Part shown: positions 6,627-24,797 of the stretch, one piece after another | Layout of the letters: every line of letters begins with the position of its first letter | Position numbering within the stretch: position 1 is the first letter of the stretch | Origin: Paracoccaceae bacterium | GTDB lineage: Bacteria; Pseudomonadota; Alphaproteobacteria; Rhodobacterales; Rhodobacteraceae | Direction: 5' to 3' | Assembly: GCA_020832705.1 (NCBI GenBank) | Contig: JAFIEE010000006.1 | Span: 1 to 42,753, forward strand | Length of the DNA stretch: 42,753 bases | The notes under the pieces: generated by a model | The model's input: only the letters and a program-made list of their open reading frames with translations | Databases searched by the model: none | Told to the model about the DNA's origin: nothing | Translations under genes and position numbers: made by a program

Positions 6627-6717
6627 CTCGCGGCAGTTCCCCGGAAGACGATGCAGGAAATCGGCCGCGGTGTCGGCGTAGATCATGTCCCGGCAGGCTG
6701 CGCGCAGAGTATCCCGT

Positions 6718-8301: not shown

Positions 8302-8359
8302 GGTTCCACGTCCTGTCCGTCAAACGCCAAGTGTCCGGCATGCGCCGGAGCACCGATTT

Positions 8360-8382
8360 GCCCACCAATAGCCCACTAGTAA
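8360..8382. promoter_or_regulatory. Direct-repeat operator, copy 1
   Basis: GCCCAC (8360) and GCCCACTAGTA (8371) are repeated with an 11-bp period, 59-81 bases upstream of the FAD oxidoreductase start. The block CAACCGGAA follows 8 bases after the repeat, as it does in copy 3. Same orientation relative to the leftward gene as the other copies. Confidence 0.75.
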
Positions 8383-8429
8383 AAAACTGCAACCGGAATC
8401 GCGATCCCGGACCCTCGGCGGACCACGGG

Positions 8430-9932
8430 TCACAGCTTGCGCTGGACCTCGAAGGCTTCGTTGACAAACCACAGGCCGCGATGGCGCAACAGCACCTTGC
8501 GCGTGGCATCCAGATAATCGGTGCCACTGCGCATGACCGCCTCCACCAGTTGCTCGCGCACCCGGGCGAAATAGACGGCATTGCTCCATGCCCCCTGAAG
8601 CGACAGGTCGGGCTGGTCGGACCCGGTGATCGTGGGCAGGGTGTGCATGTCGAAGCGATAAAGCGACCGCGCATCGGTCAACCCCCGCAGCGAGGCGCCG
8701 CGCATCAGGTCCGGGCGCGCCTTGCGCAGCGCCGAGATGATGTCATGGCGCGAAACCGGCTTCAGCGGCTCGTTCGGCCACACACTCTGGATGATCTCGT
8801 GCGCCGGATCGCTCCCCAGCGATTGCACCACCTTCATCCGTCCCCCGGGCGCCAGGTGGGAAATGATCGGCGCCAGGATGTAATCCACCCGGAATTTCAT
8901 GGTGTGGCTGTGCAGATAGGGGTGGTTGAGGAAAGCATAATCGAACGCCAGCGGTGGGCCGTCGGGGCGCGGCAGCAGGTGCGCGATCGCCTTGCGCTGG
9001 TCAGCACGCATGATGGTGACCACGCTGGGCCGGCTGTAGACCGGGAAATCGTCCGGCCCCTGGCGCACGCACCATTCCGGCGCGATACGCGGGAACAGGT
9101 CAGCCAGTTGCAGCTGATAGTCGTAGCTCACCCGTCCGGTCAGGCCGATTTCGTGCCAGGCGAGATCGCGCGGGCCTTCGGCAGCCGTCTTCTTCAGATG
9201 CACTGCCTCGCGCGTGTAGAGGTTGGTCAGCACGAAGACAAGCTGCGGGTGCTCGATCAGCCGGTCGATCATCCGGCCCATGGTGTTGCGCAGATCCTCC
9301 AGCCCCCAGCCCTTCATCACCACCAGGATCGGCAGTCCGGGGTGGCGCGCATGTATCGCGCGCAGCACCCGCGTCAGGGTCACGCCGTTATCCATCGGGG
9401 AATAGAACAGCCGCAGCCCCGTTTCAGGCGGCGGATCCTGCAACAGATCAGTCACGATCATGTCCGCCTGCACCCAGCTTTCATTGGTGGTGGCGGCAAA
9501 GACATGCGAACGGTGGCGCTGTTCATGGATGGCAAAGCTGCCCGGCGTGCGGATGGAGCTTTCGCGGTTGACCAGTTCCGCCATCGTATAGGCATTCGAC
9601 GTGCTTTTCTTGCGCCGAGGGCGGCCGCGCAATTCGATCTCGCCGCGGTTGACGCGCTCCATGAACTCTTCGATGCGCGCTCGGGTGGTCGGTTCGACAC
9701 GGCTGCCCCGGGCGATCCGGCTGGCAAGCTTGCCGTCATTCACCGCCAGCCGCCCCAGAGTCGACGCAGCGATCCCATGCGTGCGGCAGAAGGCTTCGAT
9801 GACCTCCAGCAGCGCCGCACCGGGCAGGTCCGCAGGCGTCTGATCCGCTTGCGCAGTGGACGCGCGGGCGCGGGCGCTGTTCTCCGGCTCGGGCCTGTCT
9901 TCAGGCATATCCTGGTCGAGCTTCTGGCCCAT
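8430..9932 (-). CDS. Putative regulator: HTH-like N terminus plus methyltransferase-like domain
   Basis: A 500-residue protein. Residues about 30-85 form a small helical domain (FCRTHGIAASTLGRLAVNDG followed by ARIEEFMERV) like the short DNA-binding modules seen in alphaproteobacterial regulators, followed by a basic stretch (RGRPRRKKS). The remaining 390 residues look like a class I methyltransferase-type Rossmann domain: FDYAFLNHPY resembles motif IV, and LAPGGRMKVVQ a later strand. A clear SAM-binding GxGxG loop is missing. The ATG at 9932 has AGGGAGGA 10 bases upstream; an earlier in-frame ATG at 10001 lacks one. It diverges from the LigM-like gene. I infer that it is the local transcription factor for the direct-repeat elements. 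The family is not one I can name. Confidence 0.65.
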   Translation of the reverse strand: MGQKLDQDMPEDRPEPENSARARASTAQADQTPADLPGAALLEVIEAFCRTHGIAASTLGRLAVNDGKLASRIARGSRVEPTTRARIEEFMERVNRGEIELRGRPRRKKSTSNAYTMAELVNRESSIRTPGSFAIHEQRHRSHVFAATTNESWVQADMIVTDLLQDPPPETGLRLFYSPMDNGVTLTRVLRAIHARHPGLPILVVMKGWGLEDLRNTMGRMIDRLIEHPQLVFVLTNLYTREAVHLKKTAAEGPRDLAWHEIGLTGRVSYDYQLQLADLFPRIAPEWCVRQGPDDFPVYSRPSVVTIMRADQRKAIAHLLPRPDGPPLAFDYAFLNHPYLHSHTMKFRVDYILAPIISHLAPGGRMKVVQSLGSDPAHEIIQSVWPNEPLKPVSRHDIISALRKARPDLMRGASLRGLTDARSLYRFDMHTLPTITGSDQPDLSLQGAWSNAVYFARVREQLVEAVMRSGTDYLDATRKVLLRHRGLWFVNEAFEVQRKL

Positions 9933-10062
9933 CGTGTACCGGTCCTCCCTGCGTGCCCAAGTTCTGGGCAGTCGCTTCAAACTGGCGTTGCACCGCTGCA
10001 CTTGTCAACGCAACAGGCACGAAACGCGCGCTGTCATCCCTCGGCATTAGGGGTTGCATTCT

Positions 10063-10084
10063 GCCCATCTTAGGCCCACTAGTA
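10063..10084. promoter_or_regulatory. Direct-repeat operator, copy 2
   Basis: GCCCAT (10063) and GCCCACTAGTA (10074), 11-bp period. It lies in the divergent region between the putative regulator (start 9932) and the LigM-like gene (start 10138), 54-75 bases upstream of the latter. It could serve both, allowing autoregulation. Confidence 0.75.
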
Positions 10085-10137
10085 ACAAGTGCGCGGGATA
10101 CCCCGCCCGATTCCTTTCACACTCAGGGGCCGACGCA

Positions 10138-11502
10138 ATGTCCATCAAGACGCTCGAAGACAAGCTCAACGCCATCGGAAACCCGGTCGAAATGCTGCGC
10201 AACGCACAGACCGGCCCCTATCAGTTTCCCATCAAGGCCGAGTTCACCAACTGGCGCGACGAACAGGAAGCCTGGCGCAACGGTGCGGTGCTGTTCGACC
10301 AGTCCTTTCACATGACCGACCACTACATCGAAGGCCCGGACGTGAAGCGGCTGGTGCAGGATCTGGCCATCAACTCCATGGCCAATTTCCGCAAGGACAT
10401 CGCCAAGCAGGTGGTGTTCTGCAACCATGACGGCTTCATCATCGCCGATGCGATCATGTTCATTCTGGAAGATGACCGGATCAACATCGTCAACAAGCCC
10501 ACCAACCGTGACTGGGTAGAATACAACATCCAGACCGGCGGGTACAATGTAACCTCCACCACTGACGACCGCGCACTGGACAACAGGGGTCGGCGCCGGG
10601 GCTACAGGTTCGAGGTTCAGGGCCCCAATGCAAACGCCATTCTGGAAAAGCTCAACGGCGGCCCACTGGAAGGGTTCAAGTTCTTCGGGATGGGTTATAT
10701 CAGCATCGATGGGGTGCAGGTGCGCGCACTGCGCCACGGCATGGCCGGGGCGGTGGGGCTGGAACTGTTCGGCCCGTTCGACGACTACGACCGTATCCGC
10801 GATGCGATCATGGAGGCCGGCGCCGATCACGGGCTTCTGGCCGCCGGGTCCAAGACCTATTCCACCGTGGCCCATGAAAGCGGCTGGTTCCCCTCGCCCC
10901 TCCCGGCGATCTATTCGGGCGAGAAGATGAAGCCCTTCCGCGAATGGCTCGGCGCCGACAGTTTCATGGCCAATCTGTCTCTGGGCGGCTCGCTGGTGTC
11001 GGACCGGGTCGAAGACTATTACCTGACCCCCTTTGACATCGGCTACAGCCATATCCTGAAGTTCGATCATGACTTCATCGGCCGTGAGGCGCTGGAAGCC
11101 ATGCGCGACCAGCCCCACAAACACAAGGTCACCCTGCGCTGGAACAAGGAAGACGTGGTGCGCGTGTTCGCCTCCATGTTCAGCGAAGGCGACCGCTTCA
11201 AGTTCATGGACATGCCCGCCTCGCATTATGCCACCTGCCCCTATGATCTGGTCAGCAAGGACGGTCGCCCGGTGGGACTGTCGCATTACCCGGTCTATAC
11301 CTCGAACGTGGCGGGCTGGATCTCGCTCGCGCTTCTGGACGAACAGGTTGCCGAGCCCGGCACGCAGGTGTCGCTGACCTGGGGAGAACCCGATGGCGGC
11401 ACCCGCAAGCCCACGGTGGAACGCCATATCCAGACCGAAATCGCCTGCACGGTGGAACCCTGCCCGATCTCGGTCACGGCGCGGGAAAGCTATCGCAAGT
11501 AA
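10138..11502 (+). CDS. LigM-like tetrahydrofolate-dependent aryl O-demethylase (GcvT family)
   Basis: A 454-residue GcvT-fold protein that follows LigM (vanillate/3-O-methylgallate O-demethylase of Sphingobium) along its whole length. Shared stretches include NPVEMLRNAQTG, AVLFDQSFHM, YNIQTGGYNV, ALRHGMAGAVGLE, ESGWFPSPLPAIYSG, FDHDFIGREALEA and a WGEP/GGTRK/SVTARESY C terminus. These enzymes move the methyl group of a methoxyaromatic to tetrahydrofolate, leaving a catechol or gallate. The Tyr in SKTYSTVAHESGW matches the position I recall as the catalytic Tyr of LigM. The frame opens upstream at 10054, but ATG 10138 begins the conserved N terminus. It is divergent from the putative regulator, with a direct-repeat operator between them. 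The natural substrate could be vanillate, 3-O-methylgallate or another methylated compound. Confidence 0.85.
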   Translation: MSIKTLEDKLNAIGNPVEMLRNAQTGPYQFPIKAEFTNWRDEQEAWRNGAVLFDQSFHMTDHYIEGPDVKRLVQDLAINSMANFRKDIAKQVVFCNHDGFIIADAIMFILEDDRINIVNKPTNRDWVEYNIQTGGYNVTSTTDDRALDNRGRRRGYRFEVQGPNANAILEKLNGGPLEGFKFFGMGYISIDGVQVRALRHGMAGAVGLELFGPFDDYDRIRDAIMEAGADHGLLAAGSKTYSTVAHESGWFPSPLPAIYSGEKMKPFREWLGADSFMANLSLGGSLVSDRVEDYYLTPFDIGYSHILKFDHDFIGREALEAMRDQPHKHKVTLRWNKEDVVRVFASMFSEGDRFKFMDMPASHYATCPYDLVSKDGRPVGLSHYPVYTSNVAGWISLALLDEQVAEPGTQVSLTWGEPDGGTRKPTVERHIQTEIACTVEPCPISVTARESYRK

Positions 11503-11734
11503 GGCGCGGCGCGGCGGGCGCCAGCCGTGCCCGTCGCGATGTCCGCCCCGCCCTCCGGGCCATTCGCCGGGATCGGTATTCACAGGTGGCGATTCCAGCC
11601 CGCGCATTCAGGTCGGCGTTGTATCTGCCTGCCGCCTTGCCTGCCGCAGGCACCGGCGCCGGATCATGCTCGACCAAAGCACGCCCGGAGAACTGCCCCG
11701 AATGCCCAAGGCTCGATCCCGCGCAAAACGCTAT

Positions 11735-12032
<298 letters not shown>

Positions 12033-12036
12033 GGGG

Positions 12037-12601
12037 AAGCGATATGCGCGTTCATGCAGGCAACGCAATTCACCTTCCTGCCGATCCCGCTGTTCCTGTT
12101 GATGGGCGAGCTGTACTTTCGCACCGGCCTCCCACAACGGGTGTTCAATGCGGTGGACGTGCCGGTCGTCATCGCCTCGTCCACGTTCTCGCAGCTCCTG
12201 GACTTCTCCGGGGGGTCGGGCGGGCTGGTCAACATGGCCCGCGGGCTTCAGGCCTCGCCGATGGTGGTCATCATTGCCATGTTTGCGGTCGTGCTGGTGA
12301 TGGCATGTTCATGGAACAGGTGTCGATCATGATGCTGACGGTGCCCGTGTTCTTTCCCATCGTCCAGGCGCTGGGAATCGATCCGATCGGGTTTGCCGTG
12401 ATCATGCTGCTGTCGCTGGAATTGGCAGGCGTCACACCGCCCTTCGGGATGAACCTTTTCGTGCTGCTGGGGGTGGCGCCGCAAGGGACCACGCTCAATG
12501 ACGTGACCTTGGCGGCGGCGCCGTTCCTTCTGGCGTCGTTTCTGCTGTTCCTGCTGCTGGCCTTTCCGCAGATCGCACTGGTCCTGCCCGGTTTGATCTG
12601 A
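12037..12601 (+). pseudogene. dctM: TRAP transporter large subunit (DctM), deleted and frameshifted
   Basis: Pieces of a DctM permease in order. An N-terminal segment (FLPIPLFLLMGELYFRTGLP then VFNAVD) is fused directly to a C-terminal segment (IASSTFSQLLDFSGG onward), skipping roughly the middle half of a normal protein of about 430 residues. Near 12300 the frame shifts: the first frame runs into MACSWNR while the next frame continues with MFMEQVSIMMLTVPVFFPIV and reaches a natural C terminus at 12601. The 5' end is replaced by the GGGCAT repeat. With an N-terminal truncation, an internal deletion and a frameshift it cannot make a working transporter. No dctP or dctQ is nearby. Confidence 0.85.
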
Positions 12602-12717
12602 GAACCGGCGGCGCCGTGTCTTGCGCGCCCCGCGACGCCGCAACGGCGCGCCCCTGGCGCACGGGTGGTCGGGCGCGGCGCGGGGGCGCTTTTCGGACCG
12701 GAACCCTGGGTCTGCGC

Positions 12718-12894
12718 TCAGACGGGTTTGCCCGCGACCGCGTAATTGCCGCGCGGCAATTCGTGGATCACCACGCGCACCTGTTCGGGCTTTGCGTCGA
12801 GCACCTCGACAAAGGCATCCGTGATGCGCTCCATCAGCCTGGTTCTGGTTTCCTGCGGGCGACCTTCGAGGATTTCGACAGTGATGATGGCCAT
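12718..12894 (-). CDS. 4-oxalocrotonate tautomerase-like protein with Ala at the catalytic N terminus
   Basis: A 58-residue protein of the 4-OT family. Counting after Met1 removal, the substrate-binding Arg11 (ILEGR) and Arg39 (QVRVVI) are conserved and Phe50 is replaced by Tyr (RGNYAV). The amino-terminal proline that acts as the general base in the family is Ala here: the sequence starts MAIITVE. The start is well supported by AAAGGA 8 bases upstream of the ATG at 12894. Family members interconvert 2-hydroxymuconate-type dienols; without Pro1 the usual mechanism is impaired, so it may do another task or depend on sequence I cannot see. It is the last gene of the leftward catabolic operon, after a short 12-bp repeat array. 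Confidence 0.8.
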   Translation of the reverse strand: MAIITVEILEGRPQETRTRLMERITDAFVEVLDAKPEQVRVVIHELPRGNYAVAGKPV

Positions 12895-12920
12895 GGGGAC
12901 GTTCCTTTCGGTTGGGGTCA

Positions 12921-12956
12921 GTGCCTGTGTCAATGCCTGTGTCCGTGCCTGTGTCA
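12921..12956. repeat. Three 12-bp tandem repeats
   Basis: Units GTGCCTGTGTCA, ATGCCTGTGTCC and GTGCCTGTGTCA stand head to tail between the SDR stop codon and the ribosome binding site of the tautomerase gene. The last unit includes the SDR stop. Each unit differs from the consensus by at most two bases, so the array is recent or selected. Confidence 0.85.
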
Positions 12957-13727
12957 GTGCATCACGCCGCCACCATCGACCACCAGCGTCTGCCCGCTGA
13001 TGAAGGCGCTTTCACCTGACAACAGGAAGGCGACAGGCCCGACGATATCCTCGGGCACGGCCTCGCGGGACAAGGCGCGGGAACGGGTGACAGCGGCGGC
13101 GCGGTCGGTGATGCCGGGGCGCGCGCGCACGCCCTCGGACATGGTCAGTCCCGGGCAGACAATGTTGACCCGCACGCCAAGGGGCCCCAGTTCGCGCGCC
13201 AACGCCTTGCCCATGGCGTGAACCGCACCCTTCGACGCATCGTAATGCAGCATCATCGGATAGCCCGCCAGCACCCGGTTGGTGCCGATCAGTACCACCG
13301 ATCCGGCGCGGCCGGCCAGCGCAGGCGCGGCGGCGCGCACGCTCAACCATGTGCCGCGCACGTTCACACGCATGACCCTGTCCCAAAGGTCCGGGTCGAT
13401 ATCTTCCTGCGCAGTGATCGGCAGCGCGTTGAACAGCGCGGCATTGCAGACGATCCCGTCCAGCCCGCCGAAGGTGTCGGTCGCGGCCGCGACCATCCGC
13501 GCGCAGTCCGTTGGCTCGGCAATATCGGTGCGCACGGCAAGCGCTTGACCGCCGCTTTCGCGGATGGCGCTGGCGGTGGTTTCGGGATCGGCCAGATCGG
13601 CCAGCACGACCGCGGCACCACGGGCGGCAAACCCGGCAGCCATGGCCGCGCCGATCCCCTGTGCAGCGCCGGTGATGAGGATGGTCTTGCCGTGCAGGGT
13701 GGCGGGGGGAGTCGATGCGTCAGTCAT
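12954..13727 (-). CDS. Short-chain dehydrogenase/reductase
   Basis: A 257-residue classical SDR: cofactor motif GAAQGIG near residue 20, NAALFN in place of the usual NNAG, active-site Ser in VVLIGTNRVLAG weakly conserved as Thr/Asn, and intact catalytic YDASKGAVHAMGKALA. The C terminus has SGQTLVVDGGGVMH. The ATG at 13727 overlaps the aldehyde dehydrogenase stop (ATGACTGA), so the two are translationally coupled. It would oxidise a secondary alcohol or reduce a ketone in the CoA/aldehyde pathway encoded upstream. The Ser replacement by GTN is unusual but occurs in some families, so I keep the enzyme call. Confidence 0.85.
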   Translation of the reverse strand: MTDASTPPATLHGKTILITGAAQGIGAAMAAGFAARGAAVVLADLADPETTASAIRESGGQALAVRTDIAEPTDCARMVAAATDTFGGLDGIVCNAALFNALPITAQEDIDPDLWDRVMRVNVRGTWLSVRAAAPALAGRAGSVVLIGTNRVLAGYPMMLHYDASKGAVHAMGKALARELGPLGVRVNIVCPGLTMSEGVRARPGITDRAAAVTRSRALSREAVPEDIVGPVAFLLSGESAFISGQTLVVDGGGVMH

Positions 13728-15159
13728 GGTTGAGGATGATCGCCTTGGCTTCGGTGAAGTTCTCCCAGCTGAAATGCCCGCCCTCGCGCCCCACGCCAGA
13801 GGCATTGAAGCCGCCGAAAGGGGCATTGAGTTCGCGCTGGATCGCGGTGTTGACGCAGACCGTGCCCGCCCGCAACCCGTGGGCCATGCGCATGGCCCTG
13901 CCCTGATCGCGGGTCCAGACATAGGCCGCAAGGCCATAGGCGCTGTCATTGGCCAGCGACAGTGCCTCGGCCTCGTTGGCAAAGCTCATGGCCGCGCCGA
14001 CGGGGCCGAAAAGCTCCTCGCGCCACAGCGCGCTCCCGGTCGTGGCGACGCGGAAAAGAGTGGGCGCGATAAAGGCCCCGGCCTCCAGTCCCGGCGGCAC
14101 CTTCCCGCCGGTCAGGCAGGTATCGCCCGCGTTCGTGGCCGCCGTGCAGTGACGCAAGAGCCCGTCGCGGTGCCCGATGGAAATCATCGGCCCCATCTCC
14201 ACACCCTCCTGCGCGGGATCACCCAGCCGGATGGCGCGGGCGCGGGCGGCGAAGCGGGTCAGGAATTCCTCGGCGATGCTGTCTTCGATCACCAGGCGCG
14301 AGCCTGCGAGGCACGCCTCGCCGTTGTTGGCGAAGAGGCTTGCCAGCGCGCCATCCAGCGCGCGGTCCGGGTCGGCATCGGCAAAGACGATGGTGGCGGA
14401 TTTGCCGCCCAGTTCGGTCACGCAGGGCAGGTGCCGCCGCGCCGCCGCCGCGGCCACCGCCGCGCCGCCTCCGTGCCCGCCGGTAAAGGAAATCATGTCG
14501 ACGCCCGGTGCCTCGGCCAGCGCGGCACCGGTGACCGACCCGCGCCCGTTGACCACATTGAGGACGCCCGGCGGCAAGCCCGCGTCCTCGACCAGATCCA
14601 GAAAGGCGCGCATCAGCCGTGGCACCGCTTCGGACGGCTTCACCACGGCGCTGTTGCCGGCGGCCAGGCAGGGCGCCAGCTTTACCGCCGTCAGCCCGAT
14701 GGGCACGTTCCAGGGCGAAAACAGCGCGCAGGTGCCAATGGGCACGCGGTCCAGCAGCGTGCTGGCCCCGCCCAACTGGCGCCAGAACGCGCCGGTTTCC
14801 AGACTCAGGTAGTCGGCGTAATAGTCGAACCAGTCCGCCGCGCCGGCGATGTGCCGCCGGGCCGAAGACCGGGGCAACCCGGTTTCGGCGATCTGCAGAT
14901 CTGCCAGCACCCCAGCCTCATCGCGCAGCGTGGCCGCAATGCGCCGCAGCACGGCCTGCCGGGCGCGGAACGGCTGGTCGCGCCAGCGGCCATCGGCAAA
15001 GGCATCGGCAGCCGCGGTCACGGCGGCCTGCACCTGAGCGGGCGTGGCCTCTGCCATGGTGGCAAGGGGCGCGCCGGTGGCAGGGTTGACGATTCCCAGC
15101 GTCTTGCCCTGACCGGGCACGTCCTGCCCGGCAATCCTGTGGGGGACTTCCGCGCTCAT
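13720..15159 (-). CDS. NAD(P)-dependent aldehyde dehydrogenase
   Basis: A 479-residue enzyme of the ALDH superfamily. Visible are the SPWNVPIGLTAVKLAPCLAAG cofactor region, the general-base Glu in VTELGGKSA, the nucleophile Cys in FANNGEACLAGSR, and the C-terminal EELFGPV and PFGGFNASGVGREGG motifs. Overall it looks most like the hydroxymuconic/benzaldehyde-type dehydrogenases. In this operon, next to a CoA synthetase and an enoyl-CoA hydratase, a benzaldehyde-type product such as vanillin is a reasonable substrate. This is inference; the family is too broad to fix the substrate. Its start overlaps the acyl-CoA synthetase stop (ATGA). Confidence 0.9.
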   Translation of the reverse strand: MSAEVPHRIAGQDVPGQGKTLGIVNPATGAPLATMAEATPAQVQAAVTAAADAFADGRWRDQPFRARQAVLRRIAATLRDEAGVLADLQIAETGLPRSSARRHIAGAADWFDYYADYLSLETGAFWRQLGGASTLLDRVPIGTCALFSPWNVPIGLTAVKLAPCLAAGNSAVVKPSEAVPRLMRAFLDLVEDAGLPPGVLNVVNGRGSVTGAALAEAPGVDMISFTGGHGGGAAVAAAAARRHLPCVTELGGKSATIVFADADPDRALDGALASLFANNGEACLAGSRLVIEDSIAEEFLTRFAARARAIRLGDPAQEGVEMGPMISIGHRDGLLRHCTAATNAGDTCLTGGKVPPGLEAGAFIAPTLFRVATTGSALWREELFGPVGAAMSFANEAEALSLANDSAYGLAAYVWTRDQGRAMRMAHGLRAGTVCVNTAIQRELNAPFGGFNASGVGREGGHFSWENFTEAKAIILNHD

Positions 15160-17234: not shown

Positions 17235-17278
17235 GGTCACTGCCTCCAGACTGTTGGTGCGGGCGGTCCCGCCCATCC

Positions 17279-18076
17279 TCATCGCCCCCTGAAGGCCGCT
17301 GGTCGCTTTTCGCGGAACGCGGCAAGCCCCTCGGCGCGGTCTTCGGAGAAGAACATCAGCGCCGACAGATCGCCCCCCGTGGCCAGCGCCTCGTCCAGGC
17401 CTTGCGATGGCGCCCGCATCACTGCCTGCTTGGCCGCCATGACTGCCAGCGGGCCGTTTTCCGCAATGACCCCGGCGATTTCCACCGCGCGGGGGCAAGC
17501 GGCGCCAGCGGGTGTAACCTCGGCCACAAGGCCGATGGCATGGGCTTCCTGCGCGCCGATCCGGCGGGCGGTGAACATCATTTCCTTGGCCCGGCGCGCA
17601 CCCACCGCACGGGTCAGCGACCACGCGCCGCCCAGAATGGGGAACAGCGAAAACCGCGCCTCGGTCAGGCCCATGTCGGCGGAGTCCGCGGCCACGATGA
17701 AATCGCACAGGAGCGCGATTTCCAGCCCCCCGCCCAGACAGTGCCCTTCCACAGCGGCGATGACCGGGCGCGGGTAGCGGGCGAGGAACCGAACGAAGTC
17801 ATGCCATTCGGTGGCCACATGGCGGGCACGGTACTTGTCATAGGGGCCCAGGTCGCTGTCGGCGGCGGCCTTCAGATCGCCACCGGCGCAGAAACTCCGC
17901 TCGTCCCCGGTCAGGATCACGGCGGCGATGTCCGGATCATGCAGCACATCAAGCATGGCGGCGCGGGTCTCGGCGAGCATCCGGTCGGTCAATGCGTTGC
18001 GCGCCTGCGGGCGGTCGAAGCGGATGACCAGTGCGGCACCTTCGCGGGCAATCCTTGTTTCGGCGTGGTCTGTCAT
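17279..18076 (-). CDS. Enoyl-CoA hydratase/isomerase family protein
   Basis: A 265-residue crotonase-fold protein. The oxyanion-hole segments are SFCAGGDLK and EGHCLGGGLEIALLCD, and a candidate catalytic Glu is in LTEARFSLFP. The region differs from 4-hydroxycinnamoyl-CoA hydratase-lyase, which has a SEINWGIPPG-type segment, so I do not call it a feruloyl-CoA hydratase-lyase. It would add water to, or isomerise, an unsaturated acyl-CoA made by the synthetase next to it. The ATG at 18076 starts the conserved part; the previous gene ends 4 bases upstream, so it sits inside a tight operon. Confidence 0.88.
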   Translation of the reverse strand: MTDHAETRIAREGAALVIRFDRPQARNALTDRMLAETRAAMLDVLHDPDIAAVILTGDERSFCAGGDLKAAADSDLGPYDKYRARHVATEWHDFVRFLARYPRPVIAAVEGHCLGGGLEIALLCDFIVAADSADMGLTEARFSLFPILGGAWSLTRAVGARRAKEMMFTARRIGAQEAHAIGLVAEVTPAGAACPRAVEIAGVIAENGPLAVMAAKQAVMRAPSQGLDEALATGGDLSALMFFSEDRAEGLAAFREKRPAAFRGR

Positions 18077-18080
18077 GGGA

Positions 18081-18647
18081 TCAGTCCAGCACAACCAGAT
18101 CCAACGCCAGCTTCAGGCTTTCGCCGCTGCCCTGAAGCGTCAGCACCCGCCGCCCGCCATCCCCGGCTGCCATGTTTCGCGCAGAGGCGCCGATCAGCGC
18201 CATGCCATAAGGCAACTTTCCATCGCCGGTCCGACAGGCGGCCAGCATATCCGCCAGCGCGATGCAGGGCAGCGTCTCGCCCCCTTCCATCGCCACGGTC
18301 AGCGCCTCCAGCCCGCCCATGGCGTCCAGTCGCCACGCCTGCCGCGACAGCACCACGTCCACCGCCGCGCGACCTGCATCGCCGGTGGCCAGAAGGTCCG
18401 GGTCAGTCAGCACGCAGGCGGGCACGGCCAGCGTGCCTTCGGAGGCCGCCACAAGCGCCAGCGCCGGATGCAGGGTCACGGCGGCACGCGCCACCTGCAC
18501 CTGTTGGTCCGTCACCAGGCGCCGCGCGGGCACCGCCACAGGCGCCGCATCGCCCAGCGCCACCAGCACCCGCGCCAGCGGCAGGTCCGGGGTGATGACC
18601 ATGCCTTCGGCTCGAACATGGGGTTGATAGATGAATTGCATGGCCAT
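18081..18647 (-). CDS. Protein of unknown function in the catabolic operon
   Basis: A 188-residue soluble protein that I do not recognise. There is no signal peptide or membrane segment. It is rich in Ala, Leu and Val with a likely alpha/beta pattern and no visible catalytic motif. The ATG at 18647 has TGAGGAAC upstream; only 10 bases separate it from the isochorismatase-family stop and 4 bases separate its stop from the enoyl-CoA hydratase start. That tight spacing makes it a genuine operon member, possibly a small accessory or binding protein for the pathway. Confidence 0.75.
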   Translation of the reverse strand: MAMQFIYQPHVRAEGMVITPDLPLARVLVALGDAAPVAVPARRLVTDQQVQVARAAVTLHPALALVAASEGTLAVPACVLTDPDLLATGDAGRAAVDVVLSRQAWRLDAMGGLEALTVAMEGGETLPCIALADMLAACRTGDGKLPYGMALIGASARNMAAGDGGRRVLTLQGSGESLKLALDLVVLD

Positions 18648-18657
18648 GGGGTGTTCC

Positions 18658-19329
18658 TCAATCCAGCATCCTGATGGTATCGTCCGTGCTGCGCACGTCA
18701 CCGAAACTCTGATAGAACGAGGTCAGCCCGGCCAGATGATCCTCGTCATAGCGGGCGGCGTTGGCGTCGATCACCATGACCACCCTGTAATCCAGCATCA
18801 TTGCATCGCGCGCGGTGGATTCCGAGCACATGTTGGTGGCCGTGCCGCAGACGATCAGGTTTTCCACCCCCATCGCCTGCAAACGCGCGTGGAGGTCGCT
18901 GGAGCCTTCGACGAAGGGCGAGAACCGCTTCTTGCTGACAACCGGCTCGCCCTCGCGCACGTCCAGATCCTTGTAAAGCTCATGGCCCCAGGCGCCCCTC
19001 GACAGGCTGTTGCGGTGGTTGGCGCCCTTGGCTTCGGTAAAGAAGTGGTCATGATAGAGCGCCCACTGGCTCGGCGCGCCCTCGGCCTCGGCCACGGTCA
19101 TGATCACCCAGATGACCGGCACGCCCTTCGCGCGGCAGACCTCGGCCAACCGGTTGATGTTGGGGACGATGGATTTGGCGGTATCGACCTCGGCGACATA
19201 GAAGTTCTGCATGTCCACCACCAGCATCGCCGTCCTGGCGGGGTCGAAACTGTCGAACACTTCCAGCCGACCGCGCTTGGCCATGATCCGGTCTATGACG
19301 TATTGCGGGATCTCCACGTTGTGCGGCAT
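18658..19329 (-). CDS. Isochorismatase-family cysteine hydrolase
   Basis: A 223-residue cysteine hydrolase. The catalytic Asp is in AMLVVDMQNFYV (about residue 39), a Lys in VVSKKRFSPF, and the nucleophile Cys in VCGTATNMCSESTARDA, with the non-prolyl cis-peptide region just before it. The family hydrolyses amides such as N-carbamoyl compounds, nicotinamide, biuret and ureidoacrylate, as well as isochorismate. The substrate here is unknown. I chose the ATG at 19329 (GGGAGAGAG upstream) over an adjacent in-frame GTG. It follows the beta-propeller gene in the same leftward operon. Confidence 0.88.
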   Translation of the reverse strand: MPHNVEIPQYVIDRIMAKRGRLEVFDSFDPARTAMLVVDMQNFYVAEVDTAKSIVPNINRLAEVCRAKGVPVIWVIMTVAEAEGAPSQWALYHDHFFTEAKGANHRNSLSRGAWGHELYKDLDVREGEPVVSKKRFSPFVEGSSDLHARLQAMGVENLIVCGTATNMCSESTARDAMMLDYRVVMVIDANAARYDEDHLAGLTSFYQSFGDVRSTDDTIRMLD

Positions 19330-19345
19330 CACTCTCTCCCTTGTT

Positions 19346-20326
19346 TCAGGCAGTCGGCGCCCAGCCGATCATGCGAATTTCGCCCAGTTCGCGGGTCAAC
19401 TTGTCCCAGCTTTCGCCGCCGTCGGTGGTACGAAAGATCTGGCCGAAAATGGTGCAGAAGATGATCAGCTTCGGATCCGCCGGATGCTGGCCGATCCACC
19501 AGATGGTGGAATTGACCCGCGCGGGCAGGTCCACCTCTTCCCAACTCGCGCCAAAGTCGCGGCTGCGCAGCAGCTTGCCGGTCATGCCCGAGGGCTTGTC
19601 GCCCACCGACAGCAGCAGGTAGCCCGGCGCGTCCTGGCGCTGGATCATGCAGCGCATGTAGGGCCAGGGCGATTGCGGCACCGGCACCGGGGTCCAGGTC
19701 ACGCCGTGGTCCGCGCTGCGGTGGAGCCCTTCCTCGGTGGTGATCAGCACCGCCTGTTCCTGCCCGTCGTCACAGAACACCGTGTTGTGGGTATCGATGC
19801 TTTTCAGCCCCACGGGCAAATGTGTCCAGGTCTTGCCGCCGTCCTCGGAGCGATAGGGGCCTGCGATCTCGATCGTTACCCAGACAGCATATGGCGGCCA
19901 GGGCTCAAAGTTGATCGAGGTGACACGCGGAGTGTTGATGAAGTAGCATTCGCTGTCGATACCAAGCGCACACTGGTTCCAGCTTTCCCCGCCATCGAGG
20001 CTTTGCCAGACCTGCGCGGGCCGTGTGCCGGCATAGATCACCTGCGGGTTGCGCGGGTCGATGGCCAGTTGCTGGACGTGGAACCCGTCAAGCGGCGAGG
20101 GAACGTGCTCCCATCGCCCCGCAGCGGCCTCCCAGCGATAGATGCCCACATCGGTTCCGCACCAGAGTTCGGCGGGTCTTTCGGGGTGCGCCACCACAGA
20201 CCATGCGCGCGCCTCATTGTAGAAGCCGCCCTGCTGGGTATGGGGGCGGTTCCAGCTTTCGCCCAGATCATCGCTGAACCACACCGCCTGCATGGTGGCG
20301 GCAAAGGCACGGACGGGATCGGTCAT
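19346..20326 (-). CDS. Asp-box (BNR) beta-propeller protein
   Basis: A 326-residue repeat protein with at least six Asp-box motifs: SDDLGESW, SLDGGESW, SEDGGKTW, SADHGVTW, SRDFGASW and TTDGGESW. These are spaced about 45-60 residues apart, as in sialidase- or Vps10-like propellers. There is no signal peptide, so it is probably cytoplasmic, and sialidase catalytic residues (the Arg triad, FRIP) are not visible. Start at 20326 or 20329 (tandem ATG); AGGAG favours 20326 by spacing. It is the first gene of an eight-gene leftward operon and has its own direct-repeat operator. A binding or lactonase-like role is possible but not supported by a motif. Confidence 0.85.
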   Translation of the reverse strand: MTDPVRAFAATMQAVWFSDDLGESWNRPHTQQGGFYNEARAWSVVAHPERPAELWCGTDVGIYRWEAAAGRWEHVPSPLDGFHVQQLAIDPRNPQVIYAGTRPAQVWQSLDGGESWNQCALGIDSECYFINTPRVTSINFEPWPPYAVWVTIEIAGPYRSEDGGKTWTHLPVGLKSIDTHNTVFCDDGQEQAVLITTEEGLHRSADHGVTWTPVPVPQSPWPYMRCMIQRQDAPGYLLLSVGDKPSGMTGKLLRSRDFGASWEEVDLPARVNSTIWWIGQHPADPKLIIFCTIFGQIFRTTDGGESWDKLTRELGEIRMIGWAPTA

Positions 20327-20388
20327 CATCGGTCTCCTGTTCTTCGGGCGGGGCGCGATTCGGGCATTCTGCCCGCGCTGACCGCTTG

Positions 20389-20410
20389 GCCCACTATTAG
20401 CCCACTAGTA
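20389..20410. promoter_or_regulatory. Direct-repeat operator, copy 3
   Basis: GCCCAC (20389) and GCCCACTAGTA (20400), 11-bp period, 63-84 bases upstream of the beta-propeller gene that heads the long catabolic operon. It is followed 8 bases later by CAACCGGAA, exactly as in copy 1, so the conserved element may extend over about 40 bases here. Confidence 0.8.
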
Positions 20411-20451
20411 TAAGATCACAACCGGAAACTGATCGCGCGTGCTATCCGCCG

Positions 20452-22512
20452 CTAGAAAAAATTGCTGAATTGCGGGCGCTGGAAGCGGATATTCAGGCCC
20501 CAGCCGTAAAGCAGTTCGATGATGGCCCATGACCCGGCTCCCACAAGCAGAGCCGACCACCAGGGAAATTTCCCCCACAAGACCATATACAGGCCCAGCA
20601 TGATCGGGATCGCCACCCTCTGCCCGAACAGATAGATGCCCAGCACGATCAGCCCCACATAACCGATCAGCAGCGCCGCACGCAGCAGCGTTGCCTCGGC
20701 CTCGGTCCGGGCCAGCAGCGCGCGCAACCCGATCCGGCGCAATTCTTCGCGCAACGAGGCGCTGTCGGCCAGAAGTGCGACCAGCACCATCGCCCCCCCC
20801 AGAACCGCGATCATCTGCGGAAACAGCGAATTGACCGTGCGCATGCCCATGACGCCAACAAAACCAAAAAGAAAGATACCCGCCAGCAGCAGGCACAGCG
20901 GGATCGACAGCAGCGGGCTGCGCCCCACCAGATCGCCACCGCCCCCGGCTGCGGTTGCAGGTTCGGGATCGGCCTTGCCCTCGGCGGCGCGAAGTGCCTG
21001 CAGCATCTTCATTTCGCGGTTCAGCTTGAACATGCGCCACTGGCGCCGCGCGGCCAGGATCAGCGTCAGCACAATCAGGATCATGATCACAATCACCGCC
21101 GGGCGCGCCATCCAGCCGAACCCCTGATACGTTCGGTTGGACACCAGCAGCGCGTTCTCCATGATCGGTCCCAGCACCAGCGCGATCACCAGCGGCGGGC
21201 GCGGCCAGCCCGCGACCTTGAACCAGTAGCCGAACACGCCCGCCACAAGCATCACCAGCAGGTCGCCCATGCTGGAGGTGCCAAGCCATGCGCCCATCAG
21301 CACGAACAGCAGCACCACCGGCGCCACGATATGCCCGTCCACAAAGCTGAGCCGCGCGATCTGGCGCGACCACATGATCAGCAGGACCGCCGCCACGATA
21401 TTGGCGATGATCAGCATCCCGATCATCGAAAATGTCAGATCCAGCCGTCCTGTCAGCATGTCCACACCGGGGCGGATACCCTGAATGGTGAGCGCGCCAA
21501 GCAGGATTGCCATGGCGAAATCGCCCGGAATGCCGAAGGCCAGGGTCGGGATCAGGCCGCCACCGCGCTGCGCGTTGTTGGCGGCTTCGGGGGCGATCAC
21601 GCCGCGCACATCACCCTTGCCGAAGTTCTCGTTGTTTTTCTCCGTACTGACCGCATGGCCGTAGGCTGCCCAGTCGGTGATCGACGCGCCCAGCCCCGGC
21701 AACATGCCCAGGTAGACCCCGATGGCCGAGGATCGCAGCGTCAGCCACCAGTTGCGCGCCACATCGAAGATACCGTCGATGATGCCGCGCCCGCCCGCCT
21801 CTTCGGCGCTGACGGACGAGATGTTGCGGTTCTTGGCCGATAGGTCGAGGATTTCGGCGATGGCAAAGAAGCCCAGCACGATCGACACCAGCGGCGGGGC
21901 CTGCAGCAGGTAGGGCTGTTCAAACCAGTAGCGCGGCACCGCATTGAAGCTTGATGCGCCGATCATCGACACCAGCAGCCCCAGACAGGCGACGGCTATC
22001 CCCTTGACCAGGAAAGACCCCGAGAGCGAGCCGACCATGATCAGCCCCAGCGTGGCCAGCGCGAAATACTCCGGCATCCCGAAAGCCAGCACCAGCGGCT
22101 TGGCCAGCGGGATCGACAGCGCCAGCAGGATCGCCCCCACAACGCCGCCCACCGCTGAACAGGTGAAAGCCGCCCCCAGCGCCCGCGCCGCCTGGCCCTT
22201 GCGCGCCATGGCATGCCCGTCGATGATCGTGGCCTGCGAGGCCACAGACCCCGGCACCCCCAACATGACCGAGGTGATGGTATCCGCAGAAACCACAACC
22301 GCATACATGCCAAGCAGAAGCGCAAAGGCGCTGGTGGTGTCCATGCCATAGGTGAAGGGGATCAGGATGATCAGCCCGGTCACGCCGCCAATCCCCGGCA
22401 CAACACCGGCCCAAAGGCCGATGATGATCCCGAGAAACAGGAATCCGATCGCTGGCCACTGGAAGATATTGGAAATCCCCAGGGCAAGCATTTCGAAATA
22501 CTGGGCGTCCAC
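20452..22512 (-). CDS. TTT transporter TctA-TctB fusion permease
   Basis: A 686-residue membrane protein. Residues 1 to about 510 are a full TctA permease (GVVPGIGGVTGLIILIPFTY; APEAANNAQRGGGLIPTLAF with GIPGDFAMAIL). After a polar Gly/Ala linker (TAAGGGGDLVG), residues about 540-686 form a TctB-like unit with four membrane segments (SIPLCLLLAGIFLFGFVG; LFPQMIAVLGG; LLIGYVGLIVLGIYLFGQ). Subunits B and A are normally separate genes in B-A order; here they are one chain in A-B order. The start is a GTG at 22512 with GAGGGAGGA 5 bases upstream. It follows its TctC in the operon after a 322-bp gap. Confidence 0.88.
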   Translation of the reverse strand: MDAQYFEMLALGISNIFQWPAIGFLFLGIIIGLWAGVVPGIGGVTGLIILIPFTYGMDTTSAFALLLGMYAVVVSADTITSVMLGVPGSVASQATIIDGHAMARKGQAARALGAAFTCSAVGGVVGAILLALSIPLAKPLVLAFGMPEYFALATLGLIMVGSLSGSFLVKGIAVACLGLLVSMIGASSFNAVPRYWFEQPYLLQAPPLVSIVLGFFAIAEILDLSAKNRNISSVSAEEAGGRGIIDGIFDVARNWWLTLRSSAIGVYLGMLPGLGASITDWAAYGHAVSTEKNNENFGKGDVRGVIAPEAANNAQRGGGLIPTLAFGIPGDFAMAILLGALTIQGIRPGVDMLTGRLDLTFSMIGMLIIANIVAAVLLIMWSRQIARLSFVDGHIVAPVVLLFVLMGAWLGTSSMGDLLVMLVAGVFGYWFKVAGWPRPPLVIALVLGPIMENALLVSNRTYQGFGWMARPAVIVIMILIVLTLILAARRQWRMFKLNREMKMLQALRAAEGKADPEPATAAGGGGDLVGRSPLLSIPLCLLLAGIFLFGFVGVMGMRTVNSLFPQMIAVLGGAMVLVALLADSASLREELRRIGLRALLARTEAEATLLRAALLIGYVGLIVLGIYLFGQRVAIPIMLGLYMVLWGKFPWWSALLVGAGSWAIIELLYGWGLNIRFQRPQFSNFF

Positions 22513-22701
22513 GCTTCCTCCCTCGCCGCCCGGCATGGTCCGGGCCCTGGCCGGCGTCCGCGGGCTTGACGGCGTGCCGGACCGTGATGCAATGCCTTGT
22601 GACCGGCAAGGCCGCAGGATCGCGCATGTGTGCCAGCCGTGCGATCCGGCGTGTTGCGGGCCCCGTGACCCGGCACGGATGGCGGGGGCGGGACGTGCTG
22701 C

Positions 22702-22739
22702 GGGGGGGGCCGGCGCCGCCCCGCCCGCCCCCCCCCCCC
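22702..22739 (-). other. G8/C12 hairpin between tctC and tctAB
   Basis: A run of eight G (22702-22709) and a run of twelve C (22728-22739) can pair around a GC-only loop. It lies in the 322-bp gap between the substrate-binding protein gene and the fusion permease. Such intercistronic structures often stabilise the upstream mRNA so the binding protein is made in excess. The rest of the gap (22513-22834) holds nothing I recognise. Confidence 0.5.
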
Positions 22740-22834
22740 ACCGCGGGCCGCTGCCCGGCGCCGCGCCACCGCTCATGCGGGGGCCGCAATTCAGGCTGAT
22801 GGTTCGCGCAGCGGCCCGAATAGCGGCCCGGTTG

Positions 22835-23911
22835 TCAGTCCGAGCCTTCCTCGATCATCTGCTGGATGAAGGCGATGAAATCGGCGTGCTCGGTCGGCGA
22901 TACCGCCAGGGTTTCGAGCGCGGCATCAATCACCTCCGGGTCGGACCAGACCGGGCGCGAGCCGAAGCGGGTCTCGAAGGCTTCCAGAAAGCCCTCATGT
23001 TCCTGCAGACCCCACCAGCCGGTGCGCAGCGCCTCGGCGGCCTCGTCGGGCGAGCCCTCGGGCAACCACATCGACAGCGAAACCGCGTTGGCGAGTTGAT
23101 AGAACCATTTGTAGATTTCCCACTCCTCGCTCGATGGGGGCGCGCCGTGGATCTCCTCGTACAGTTCGTCGAAGCGCACGAAGCCCTTTTCCTCGGCCAC
23201 TTCGACCGATAGCGGGTTCATGTCGGCATCGAACTCGGGGTAGTACCAGAGTGGCAGGATCGTCCCCGTGCCGCCCGGCCCCTCGACATCCATGACGTTG
23301 GACACATAGGCGTCGATATTCAGCCCGATCACGTCGATTTCACCACGCTGCATGGCCGGGCGCTGCGCCGCATCGCCCTGGAAGCCGGGCACATAGTGAT
23401 AGTCCACACCCATGATCCGCAGCGCGAGGCGCTGGCGCAGGTCGTTCGAGGCCGCCGGTTGCAGGCCACCAAGGGTCAATCGCCGCTCCATGATCTCGGC
23501 CGGTTCGTCGATCAGCCCGGCGCGGATGAGCATCCCGGTCGAGCTGATTGCGCTGCCGATGGGGATCATCTCGTCATAGCGGAAGCGCACACCTTCGGCC
23601 TGGGTCACCTGGGCGATGGAGAGCCACGGCGCGCAAAGCACGGTCATGCCGTCGTTGTCGGCTTGCTCATAGACATAGTTGTTGGCCAGAATGCCCCCTG
23701 CCCCGGCCATGTTCTGCACGATGATCGTGGGCGCGCCCGGGATGGTTTCGGGCAGGAACTCGGTTACCGTGCGGAAGAACACATCGGTGGCACCTCCCGC
23801 AGCATAGGGAACGATGCAGTTGATCGTCTCGCCCGTGTAGAAATCGGCCTTCGCTGCGGTGGCACTGGCCAGCGCGGCGCTGGCGGCCACAAGGGGTATC
23901 CACTTCTTCAT
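22835..23911 (-). CDS. TTT transporter substrate-binding protein (TctC-like)
   Basis: A 358-residue periplasmic receptor, a little longer than usual (about 320). A signal peptide (KK, ASAALASATAAKA, cleavage before DFY) is followed by INCIVPYAAGGATDVFFR, the family's carboxylate-binding loop, and VQNMAGAGGILANNYVYE. The C-terminal third (WYYPEFDADMNP to the end) is longer and more acidic than in typical Bug proteins, including an EELYEEIHG/SSEEWEIYKW insertion. The frame extends upstream, but ATG 23911 gives the signal peptide. It heads the tctC-tctAB operon and is preceded by a direct-repeat operator, so its ligand is probably the substrate of the catabolic genes. Confidence 0.88.
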   Translation of the reverse strand: MKKWIPLVAASAALASATAAKADFYTGETINCIVPYAAGGATDVFFRTVTEFLPETIPGAPTIIVQNMAGAGGILANNYVYEQADNDGMTVLCAPWLSIAQVTQAEGVRFRYDEMIPIGSAISSTGMLIRAGLIDEPAEIMERRLTLGGLQPAASNDLRQRLALRIMGVDYHYVPGFQGDAAQRPAMQRGEIDVIGLNIDAYVSNVMDVEGPGGTGTILPLWYYPEFDADMNPLSVEVAEEKGFVRFDELYEEIHGAPPSSEEWEIYKWFYQLANAVSLSMWLPEGSPDEAAEALRTGWWGLQEHEGFLEAFETRFGSRPVWSDPEVIDAALETLAVSPTEHADFIAFIQQMIEEGSD

Positions 23912-24016
23912 AGCATCCTCCAAGCTGCAAGGGGTCTGTTGTTCTGGTTCCGGGGCCGTGTGATTTGCTTTTGCAGCCGCGCCAACGGGGCATGAGCGTT
24001 TCGCATGATATCCGAG

Positions 24017-24036
24017 GCCCACTTTCATCCCACTAG
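24017..24036. promoter_or_regulatory. Direct-repeat operator, copy 4
   Basis: GCCCAC (24017) and TCCCACTAG (24028), again with an 11-bp period, 106-125 bases upstream of tctC. This is the least conserved copy: the second half begins with T and is followed by ATGA instead of TA. The remaining 23912-24291 gap contains a short CACG repeat near 24223-24237 and nothing else I can support. Confidence 0.65.
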
Positions 24037-24291: not shown

Positions 24292-24783
24292 ATGACGCCC
24301 GATCGAATCGAAGCGAAACTGATGGCCCGCGGCTTTTCACTGCCGGAACCGCTGCGGATGCCGGCGTCCAATCGTCGGCCATGGTTTCTGGCCGGGCGGA
24401 TGCTGTATCTTTCGGGCCACGGCTCGGCGCTGCTTGATGATGCCGTGGGGCCGAAGCGGATCGGCAAGGTTCCGACCGAAGTCAGCGTCGCTGACGCGCA
24501 GGCCGTTTCCGAGGCGCTGGCGCTGAAGATGCTGGCGACGATTCGTGCTGCACTGGGGCGGCTGGACCGGGTGACACAGGTGGTCAAGCTTACGGGATTC
24601 GTCAATTCCGCGCCCGATTTCGAGGCCCCGAATACGGTCATCAACGGCGCGTCGGACCTGTTTCATGATCTCTACGGCCCCGAAGCGGGGTGTCACTGCC
24701 GCTCGGCCATCGGGGCAGGCGCGCTGGTGGCGCGCCAGTCGGTCGAGATCGAGGGCATCTTCATGGTCGCCGCCAGAGACTGA
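24292..24783 (+). CDS. RidA/YjgF-family protein
   Basis: A 163-residue member of the RidA (YER057c/UK114) family in its longer subclass. The segments LYLSGHGSALLDD, ALKMLATIRAALGRLDRVTQVVK and the C-terminal CRSAIGAGALVARQSVEIEGIF correspond to the family core; the conserved Arg in CRSAIG is the residue that RidA uses to bind the carboxylate. RidA proteins hydrolyse reactive enamine/imine intermediates, but this subclass has varied roles. ATG 24292 has AGGAGG directly upstream. It runs rightward alone and is convergent with the LysR gene, its stop only 14 bases from that gene's 3' end. Confidence 0.87.
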   Translation: MTPDRIEAKLMARGFSLPEPLRMPASNRRPWFLAGRMLYLSGHGSALLDDAVGPKRIGKVPTEVSVADAQAVSEALALKMLATIRAALGRLDRVTQVVKLTGFVNSAPDFEAPNTVINGASDLFHDLYGPEAGCHCRSAIGAGALVARQSVEIEGIFMVAARD

Positions 24784-24797
24784 CGGCATGCGCGCCG

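What the first reader, a model, noticed from the sequence alone, without database searches (positions are those of the whole stretch)
8360..24036. Four-copy direct-repeat operator defining an undescribed aromatic regulon
GCCCAY-N5-KCCCACTAG occurs at 8360, 10063, 20389 and 24017, always with the two halves exactly 11 bp apart (one helical turn) and always on the same strand. Each copy lies upstream of an operon: FAD oxidoreductase; putative regulator and LigM-like demethylase; the eight-gene propeller-to-tautomerase operon; and tctC-tctAB. I saw no further copy of the CCCACTAG core elsewhere in the window. Copies 1 and 3 share an extra CAACCGGAA block at the same distance. A direct repeat with one-turn spacing suggests side-by-side binding of a regulator as a tandem, unlike palindromic GntR/LysR sites.
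Basis: seen in the sequence. Interest (0 to 1): 0.85.

Follow-up and report, generated by a model that had tools for sequence, protein, structure and literature searches.

The report
Tandem operator of a pseudo-methyltransferase regulator
Four nearly identical switch sites in this bacterial DNA, found again beside the same genes in related bacteria, probably bind a new kind of gene switch made from a DNA-binding head and a methyl-transferring enzyme that appears to have lost its own activity.

Summary
CTAGTGGG occurs five times in the 3.64 Mb assembly, four of them at the reported sites; the fifth lacks the second half. Homologous clusters (window plus 20 other loci) carry 53 sites upstream of cluster operons, in the operon's orientation. 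The core is TAGTGGGM-N3-WARTGGGC, an 11-bp direct repeat; five sites in two Rhodospirillales bins use 10 bp.

In 295 family genomes, 5 of 5 with a full-length copy of the 8433-9932 protein (REG) have two or more sites; 1 of 290 others has one, inside a coding frame. REG joins a probably lambda-repressor-like helix-turn-helix to a class I methyltransferase fold whose SAM-binding motifs are lost in 20 of 20 fused rows and intact in 6 of 6 unfused relatives.

In 22 of 22 propeller and isochorismatase promoters the first half lies between -35 and -10 and the second overlaps the -10; the 20 RidA/LigM sites lack that -35. Best reading: a pathway-specific repressor, bound head to tail and released by a pathway ligand held in the dead enzyme pocket. 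Functional analogues are MocR and CarH. Binding, sign and ligand are inferred. An aromatic substrate is plausible but unproven.

The parts
8360..8379 (-). Operator copy 1, upstream of the FAD oxidoreductase gene
   Evidence: exact match; 11-bp direct repeat; 58 nt from the ATG at 8301
10063..10082 (-). Operator copy 2, between REG (minus) and the LigM-like gene (plus)
   Evidence: exact match; same place as the RidA/LigM intergenic site in relatives
20389..20408 (-). Operator copy 3, upstream of the eight-gene propeller operon
   Evidence: exact match; site kept upstream of propeller orthologues
24017..24036 (-). Operator copy 4, between TctC (minus) and the RidA-like gene (plus)
   Evidence: exact match
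8390..8398 (-). TTCCGGTTG block of copy 1; its TTG is at -13, candidate start of a -35 box
   Evidence: sequence
20419..20427 (-). TTCCGGTTG block of copy 3; its TTG is at -13, same role
   Evidence: sequence
8430..9932 (-). REG: 500-aa candidate regulator, HTH plus methyltransferase-like domain
9648..9821 (-). HTH domain of REG (residues 38-95), probably lambda-repressor-like
   Evidence: model pLDDT 88; Foldseek and VIA-align neighbours HipB, ClgR, SinR, C.Esp1396I, weak scores
8433..9539 (-). Methyltransferase-like domain of REG (residues 132-500), SAM motifs degenerate
   Evidence: VIA-align Z 18.0, rmsd 3.6, 266 aligned to 2eg5_E; motif comparison
6718..8301 (-). FAD-dependent oxidoreductase (CrtO-like, below that family's cut-off)
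10138..11502 (+). LigM/DesA-like demethylase, below curated cut-offs; start inferred from relatives
19346..20329 (-). BNR/sortilin-type propeller, first gene of the operon
18658..19332 (-). Isochorismatase-family hydrolase; has its own operator in many relatives
18081..18701 (-). Unassigned protein, approximate start
   Evidence: no Pfam hit; homologue in L068
17279..18094 (-). Enoyl-CoA hydratase/isomerase
15156..17708 (-). ATP-grasp acyl-CoA synthetase (ORF overlong at N-terminus)
13720..15159 (-). Aldehyde dehydrogenase
12954..13697 (-). Short-chain dehydrogenase (part homologous to relatives)
12718..12933 (-). Tautomerase (4-oxalocrotonate type)
22835..23911 (-). TctC-like binding protein
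   Evidence: weak Pfam match
20452..22506 (-). TctA (with a TctB-like tail by eye)
24292..24783 (+). RidA/YjgF-like protein; in relatives usually the first gene of the REG operon

Best explanation
The four sites are operators of one pathway-specific regulon. REG (8433-9932) most likely binds them through its HTH, one protomer on each TAGTGGG half, side by side on one face of the DNA (head to tail). At the propeller and isochorismatase promoters the first half fills the -35/-10 spacer and the second overlaps the -10 box, so bound REG would exclude RNA polymerase. REG therefore most likely represses the operons and usually its own gene. The methyltransferase-like domain has lost its SAM-binding signature, so it probably acts as a pocket for a substrate or intermediate of the pathway that releases REG. 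Shown: motif, conservation, regulon membership, REG architecture, loss of SAM motifs. Inferred: binding, sign, oligomer, ligand.
For: Near absence from the rest of the genome. 50 matches with at most one mismatch against 2 for the reversed pattern in 405,012 bases of 21 loci. The 48 exact sites score 25.4 bits or more on a matrix made from them; reversed sequence reaches at most 12.3. 53 sites upstream of cluster operons. In 295 family genomes, 5 of 5 with full-length REG have sites, 1 of 290 others (Fisher p 3.3e-10). Two genomes whose REG relatives lack the HTH (G032, G054) have no strict site. The window's LysR and GntR proteins and AraC-type HTH have no counterpart in the 20 other loci. 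In 18 of 21 loci a site precedes REG or the RidA-REG gene pair. TTG at -12 or -13 in 11 of 11 propeller sites, 11 of 11 isochorismatase sites, 3 of 3 others and 4 of 5 ten-bp sites, which gives about 16-17 bp to an AWARt box overlapping half 2. 10-bp spacing at orthologous places in L055 and L066. Three tandem halves at L051:16691. SAM motifs lost in 20 of 20 fused and kept in 6 of 6 unfused rows.
Against: No binding or expression data. Presence and absence cannot separate REG from the enzymes: propeller orthologues at 50% identity or more are in the same five genomes. The 20 other loci were fetched by REG homology, so REG is in them by construction, and they reach at most about 10 kb to each side. 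TTG at -12/-13 is found in 0 of 20 RidA/LigM sites and 1 of 4 sites just before REG; fixed orientation is also usual for activators. The first T of the -10 is not conserved. In L014 no site was found upstream of REG. L068, the most distant locus, has one site, and none was found before the propeller genes of L065 and L068. G032 has one hit with one mismatch on a contig other than that of its REG relative. HTH fold matches are weak (no Foldseek E below 0.5; Z at most 6.8).
Confidence: 0.68

Rival explanations
1. REG is an activator that binds the direct repeat and touches RNA polymerase, as PhoB-type regulators do (recalled), and the promoter lies just downstream of the site.
For: The 53 sites share one orientation relative to their gene. 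The RidA/LigM class has no TTG at -12/-13 (0 of 20) and, by eye, AT-rich sequence about 15-20 bases downstream.
Against: In 22 of 22 propeller and isochorismatase sites a TTG sits 16-17 bp upstream of a -10-like box inside the site, where a bound protein would block polymerase.
Confidence: 0.22
2. A different regulator, encoded elsewhere in the genome, reads the motif; REG is an enzyme or accessory protein.
For: REG and the propeller co-occur in the same five genomes, so the motif tracks the whole cluster.
Against: REG has a predicted DNA-binding domain in 20 of 20 rows compared; the window's other regulators tested do not recur; genomes with HTH-less relatives have no strict site.
Confidence: 0.12
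3. The motif is an alternative promoter recognised by a dedicated sigma factor.
For: Fixed orientation and a position close before start codons.
Against: Two equal halves at one helical turn, three tandem halves at L051, 10- or 11-bp spacing and a separate TTG box upstream do not fit a sigma site. No sigma gene is among the cluster genes compared; the genomes were not searched for one.
Confidence: 0.04
4. The sites act in the RNA leader (riboswitch or RNA-binding protein).
For: Upstream of a start codon and in sense orientation.
Against: No Rfam family at gathering score in 6000-26000; the promoter elements place many sites before the transcription start.
Confidence: 0.03

Closest known systems
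MocR subfamily (GntR family; GabR, PdxR, TauR)
   Same: HTH fused to a fold taken from an enzyme (aminotransferase); direct-repeat operators one or several helical turns apart, with slight spacing variation within a regulog (PMC5320631, passages).
   Different: Here the HTH is probably lambda-repressor-like and the enzyme fold is a class I methyltransferase; no Pfam GntR or aminotransferase match.
CarH/CarA photoregulation repressors (MerR-type HTH plus B12 domain)
   Same: CarH: tandem 11-bp direct repeats overlapping -35 or -10, bound by a tetramer built of head-to-tail dimers; three or four repeats (PMC8156234 and PMC9304148, passages).
   Different: Two repeats as a rule, other sequence, other HTH and sensor fold; no B12-binding or MerR match.
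Xre/Cro-CI family repressors (HipB, SinR, ClgR, C.Esp1396I)
   Same: Predicted HTH fold (weak scores).
   Different: These mostly read palindromes (recalled); no Pfam HTH match for REG.
SABATH and histamine methyltransferases
   Same: Fold of residues about 132-500 (VIA-align Z 18.0, rmsd 3.6, 266 aligned to 2eg5_E). The name SABATH is recalled.
   Different: SAM motifs I and II are lost in REG; HTH added.
DNA methyltransferases with an N-terminal HTH that repress their own genes (M.SsoII, M.EcoRII; recalled)
   Same: HTH plus methyltransferase in one regulator.
   Different: Those are active DNA enzymes; REG resembles small-molecule enzymes and looks inactive.

Membership tests
MocR subfamily | N-terminal GntR winged helix | tested here: not met
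   no Pfam GntR match at E up to 10; model is a four-helix HTH near HipB and ClgR
MocR subfamily | C-terminal fold-type I aminotransferase domain | tested here: not met
   methyltransferase fold; no Pfam aminotransferase
MocR subfamily | direct-repeat operator at one or more helical turns | tested here: met
CarH | MerR HTH and cobalamin-binding domain | tested here: not met
   no Pfam MerR or B12-binding match
CarH | tandem 11-bp direct repeats over the promoter | tested here: met
   11-bp repeat; promoter boxes; three halves at L051:16691
Xre/lambda-repressor-like HTH | HTH of this fold | tested here: inconclusive
   top Foldseek rows include HipB, ClgR, SinR but E is above 0.5; Z 5.0-6.8, POU/CUT domains tied
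Class I SAM methyltransferase | Rossmann methyltransferase fold | tested here: met
   Foldseek E 1.9e-6; Z 18.0
Class I SAM methyltransferase | motif I (D-x-G-x-G-x-G) and acidic residue after strand 2 (motifs recalled) | tested here: not met
   [YF]xPMDNG and KG in 20 of 20 fused rows; DxGxGDG and KE in 6 of 6 unfused rows
Class I SAM methyltransferase | methyl transfer | not testable with these tools
   needs an assay
OmpR/PhoB-type regulators | winged helix with receiver domain | tested here: not met
   no Pfam receiver or Trans_reg_C match

The most novel reading that the evidence does not exclude
REG founds a family of one-component transcription factors made by fusing a lambda-repressor-like HTH to a dead small-molecule methyltransferase. 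The emptied SAM/substrate cleft reads a methylated pathway compound beside a methyl-removing LigM-like enzyme, and the protein stacks head to tail on repeats one helical turn apart, as MocR and CarH do from unrelated parts.
Probability: 0.45. Interest if true: 0.75.

Novelty: new variant of a known kind. Interest (0 to 1): 0.6.

Why it matters
It would be another case, beside MocR (aminotransferase) and CarH (B12 domain), of a bacterial regulator that is built from an enzyme-derived fold and reads one-turn direct repeats, this time from a methyltransferase. It names a testable operator, its likely regulator and a regulon for an uncharacterised catabolic cluster shared by Alphaproteobacteria known here mostly from metagenome bins (some sponge-associated, recalled from bin names). 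Finding the ligand would reveal the cluster's substrate.

Tried and rejected
Chance: rejected. General promoter element of the organism: rejected, since exact and one-mismatch copies in the own genome are confined to this cluster. Known RNA element: no Rfam match in 6000-26000 (the rest of the window was not scanned). LysR (24798-25991), GntR (34663-35508) or the AraC remnant (11474-12235) as regulator: no counterpart in the 20 other loci at E 1e-3; four short matches of the AraC frame cover residues 9-67, outside its HTH (79-158), and lie antisense within DctM. Sequence relatives of REG in the PDB: none convincing. Pfam and NCBIfam for REG: nothing of use. The first genome-contig scan with REG alone found no relative; the alignment found 19 loci from 77 stretches. 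An order-wide sample of 390 genomes had 20 with any match: two full-length (G000, G184), four HTH-less, 13 short HTH-type matches and one broken C-terminal match. Separating REG from the cluster by a genome with a propeller orthologue but no REG: none in the 295-genome sample; 97 have some match, but only five at 50% identity or more. The G153 hit lies inside a 959-aa frame and is counted as chance. A looser pattern in L055, L059, L065, L066 and L068 added a degenerate site in L059 before the isochorismatase gene, and showed none before the propeller genes of L065 and L068. Left out: L068 from the motif comparison, because its REG reads in pieces; L052, L064 and L065 from the tree; L081 (stop inside) from the stand-alone HTH set. 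In the tree fused and unfused rows form two groups with 100/100 support, on long branches.

Paper searches (open-licence PMC only) listed no regulator of this make-up: 0 papers; 9 of 9 listed; 12 of 53; 12 of 180. One search listed 5 of 4,218 and does not test the motif. One search (CTAGTGGGC with regulator) listed 10 of 54; in the two bacterial ones that I opened the string is a SpeI primer (PMC12016517, passages) and part of a KstR site table (PMC1995591, passage). 44 papers were not seen, so absence from print is not proven.
Full report
Observation. The core CCCACTAG (CTAGTGGG in the sense of the genes) occurs 4 times in the window against 0.28 expected, and 5 times in the 3.64 Mb assembly (86.76% complete). 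The fifth lacks the second half. Allowing two mismatches to CTAGTGGG-N6-RTGGGC, the genome has four perfect hits, none with one mismatch and 19 with two. A second genome of the same genus (G037), in which REG was not found, has 17 hits, all with two mismatches.

Conservation. The protein at 8433-9932 (REG) has full-length relatives (54-64% identity) in 4 other genomes of 295 sampled in the family. Two more have 30-32% relatives without the N-terminal domain, and one has a short weak match. The strict pattern YTAGTGGGM-N5-RTGGGM is found in 6 of the 295 genomes: the five with full-length REG (2 to 4 copies each) and G153 with one copy inside a 959-aa frame. Fisher p is 3.3e-10, not corrected for relatedness. 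At one mismatch G032, which has only an HTH-less relative, has one hit on another contig. A REG alignment found 19 loci, all metagenome bins, titled Alphaproteobacteria, Rhodospirillales or members of the Paracoccaceae/Rhodobacteraceae. L054, L056 and L062 are the contigs of G142, G201 and G014. L056, L059, L060 and L067 are close to each other, and so are L055, L065 and L066, so the counts are not independent.

Sites. In 21 loci (window, L014, L050-L068; 405,012 bases) the motif with at most one mismatch occurs 50 times, and the reversed pattern twice. A wider exact pattern gives 48 sites with 29 different 20-mers. On a matrix made from them these score 25.4 bits or more; two near-sites have 24.9 and 20.3, the next hit 15.2, and reversed sequence at most 12.3. 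Adding exact sites at 10 bp gives 53. A script placed 49 of 53 within 300 bases upstream of a cluster gene on the same strand. The other four (L051, L054, L063, L064) lie just before REG, whose variable N-terminus defeated the script. By class the 49 are RidA 15, propeller 13, isochorismatase 13, REG 4, and TctC, FAD, ECH and LigM one each. Five were flagged as inside LigM because the query ORF was read from an overlong start. L052 has no site; its contig begins within REG. A further perfect site (G201, contig C38) lies next to a TRAP-type (DctP) binding-protein gene, in reverse orientation to it.

Shape of the site. Of 107 occurrences of TA[AG]TGGG, 41 are followed by A[AG]TGGG at an offset of 11 and 5 at 10; offsets 7, 18 and 22 have one each (offsets 5-30 tested), and no inverted partner CCCA[CT]T was found at 7-39. 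The 10-bp cases are at the propeller and isochorismatase operons of L055 and L066, at places where other loci have 11 bp. So one helical turn is kept rather than the exact count. L051 has three tandem halves before the isochorismatase gene, and L057 a degenerate third before the propeller.

Promoter. TTG stands at -12 or -13 from the site in 11 of 11 propeller sites, 11 of 11 isochorismatase sites, 3 of 3 others (copies 1 and 4 of the window, L050:15930) and 4 of 5 ten-bp sites, but in 1 of 4 sites just before REG and 0 of 20 RidA/LigM sites. Counting TTGA/TTGC only, 21 of 48 are at -13/-12, and the next best position has 6. This leaves about 16-17 bp to a box at motif positions 10-15 with A 89%, T/A, A 81%, G/A, T 97%. 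The A at position 11 has no counterpart before the first half (C 81%), so the repeat alone does not explain it, while a -10 box does. The first T of a -10 is not conserved, and the RidA/LigM class does not fit; both weaken the model.

The regulator. REG has no informative Pfam or NCBIfam match. The full model (7 sequences, mean pLDDT 74.7) was collected and shows an N-terminal four-helix domain, a low-confidence linker beginning in the conserved RGRPRRKK, and a Rossmann domain that matches class I methyltransferases (Foldseek E 1.9e-6; VIA-align Z 18.0, rmsd 3.6, 266 aligned to xanthosine methyltransferase 2eg5_E). The N-terminal domain alone folds well (20 sequences, pLDDT 88). Its nearest solved structures by Foldseek include HipB, ClgR, SinR and controller proteins, all with E above 0.5; by VIA-align the 50 rows shown have Z 5.0-6.8, tied with POU and CUT domains. 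So the fold class is likely but not proven. The same domain stands alone in short frames of other genomes (12 of 12 loci tested by profile, of 13 such matches). In 20 of 20 fused rows motif I reads [YF]xPMDNG and motif II KG. In 6 of 6 unfused rows they read DxGxGDG and KE. Fused and unfused rows separate in a tree (23 rows, long branches).

Who reads the site. In 18 of 21 loci a site precedes REG or the RidA-REG pair (exceptions L014, L052, L068). The window's LysR, GntR and AraC-type HTH have no counterpart in the 20 other loci, which were fetched by REG and reach at most about 10 kb to each side. Presence and absence cannot separate REG from the enzymes.

Function of the regulon. Shared genes: propeller, small unknown protein, isochorismatase-type hydrolase, enoyl-CoA hydratase, acyl-CoA synthetase, aldehyde and short-chain dehydrogenases, CrtO-like FAD enzyme, RidA, LigM-like demethylase, an alpha/beta hydrolase and transporters. 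The aromatic label rests on LigM, whose scores fall below the curated cut-offs. A 4-oxalomesaconate tautomerase above cut-off (492.4 against 440 bits) at 28472-29530 suggests a gallate-type step nearby, but it carries no site.

Comparison. MocR regulators (PMC5320631, passages) and CarH (PMC8156234, PMC9304148, passages) work alike: an HTH plus a cofactor or enzyme-type fold, and direct repeats about one turn (MocR: one or several) apart. REG is a member of neither. No described regulator of this make-up was in the listings, which are partial.

Verdict. A real, conserved operator and regulon (about 0.95). REG as its reader is about 0.8, repression about 0.7 and the sensor role about 0.5; these are my judgements.

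Noticed in passing
window 11474-12601: A (GGGCAT)n hexamer array at 12002-12034 lies where an AraC-type HTH frame (minus) and pieces of a DctM transporter gene (plus) in two frames meet; it looks like a decayed DctM gene next to an AraC remnant.
   Followed up: partly
window 12917-12960: A 12-bp tandem array (3.7 copies) at the junction of the tautomerase and short-chain dehydrogenase genes.
   Followed up: no
window 28472-29530: 4-oxalomesaconate tautomerase (above NCBIfam cut-off) near a PIG-L family gene (26951-27760): a likely gallate-pathway segment outside the regulon.
   Followed up: partly
L018, L019, L071-L074: HTH-less relatives of REG with intact SAM motifs: an unnamed methyltransferase-like family that may be the source of the REG sensor domain.
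   Followed up: partly
L075-L080, L082-L086, L088: Short stand-alone frames (71-174 aa) with the same HTH-like domain in other genomes of the family; function unknown.
   Followed up: partly
REG residues 336-345 (NHPYLHSHTM): A histidine-rich stretch kept with small changes in the 20 fused rows and absent from the 6 unfused ones; possible ligand or metal site.
   Followed up: no
window 2233-5876: A second TctC/TctA set with an arylmalonate decarboxylase-like gene on the plus strand, without the motif.
   Followed up: no
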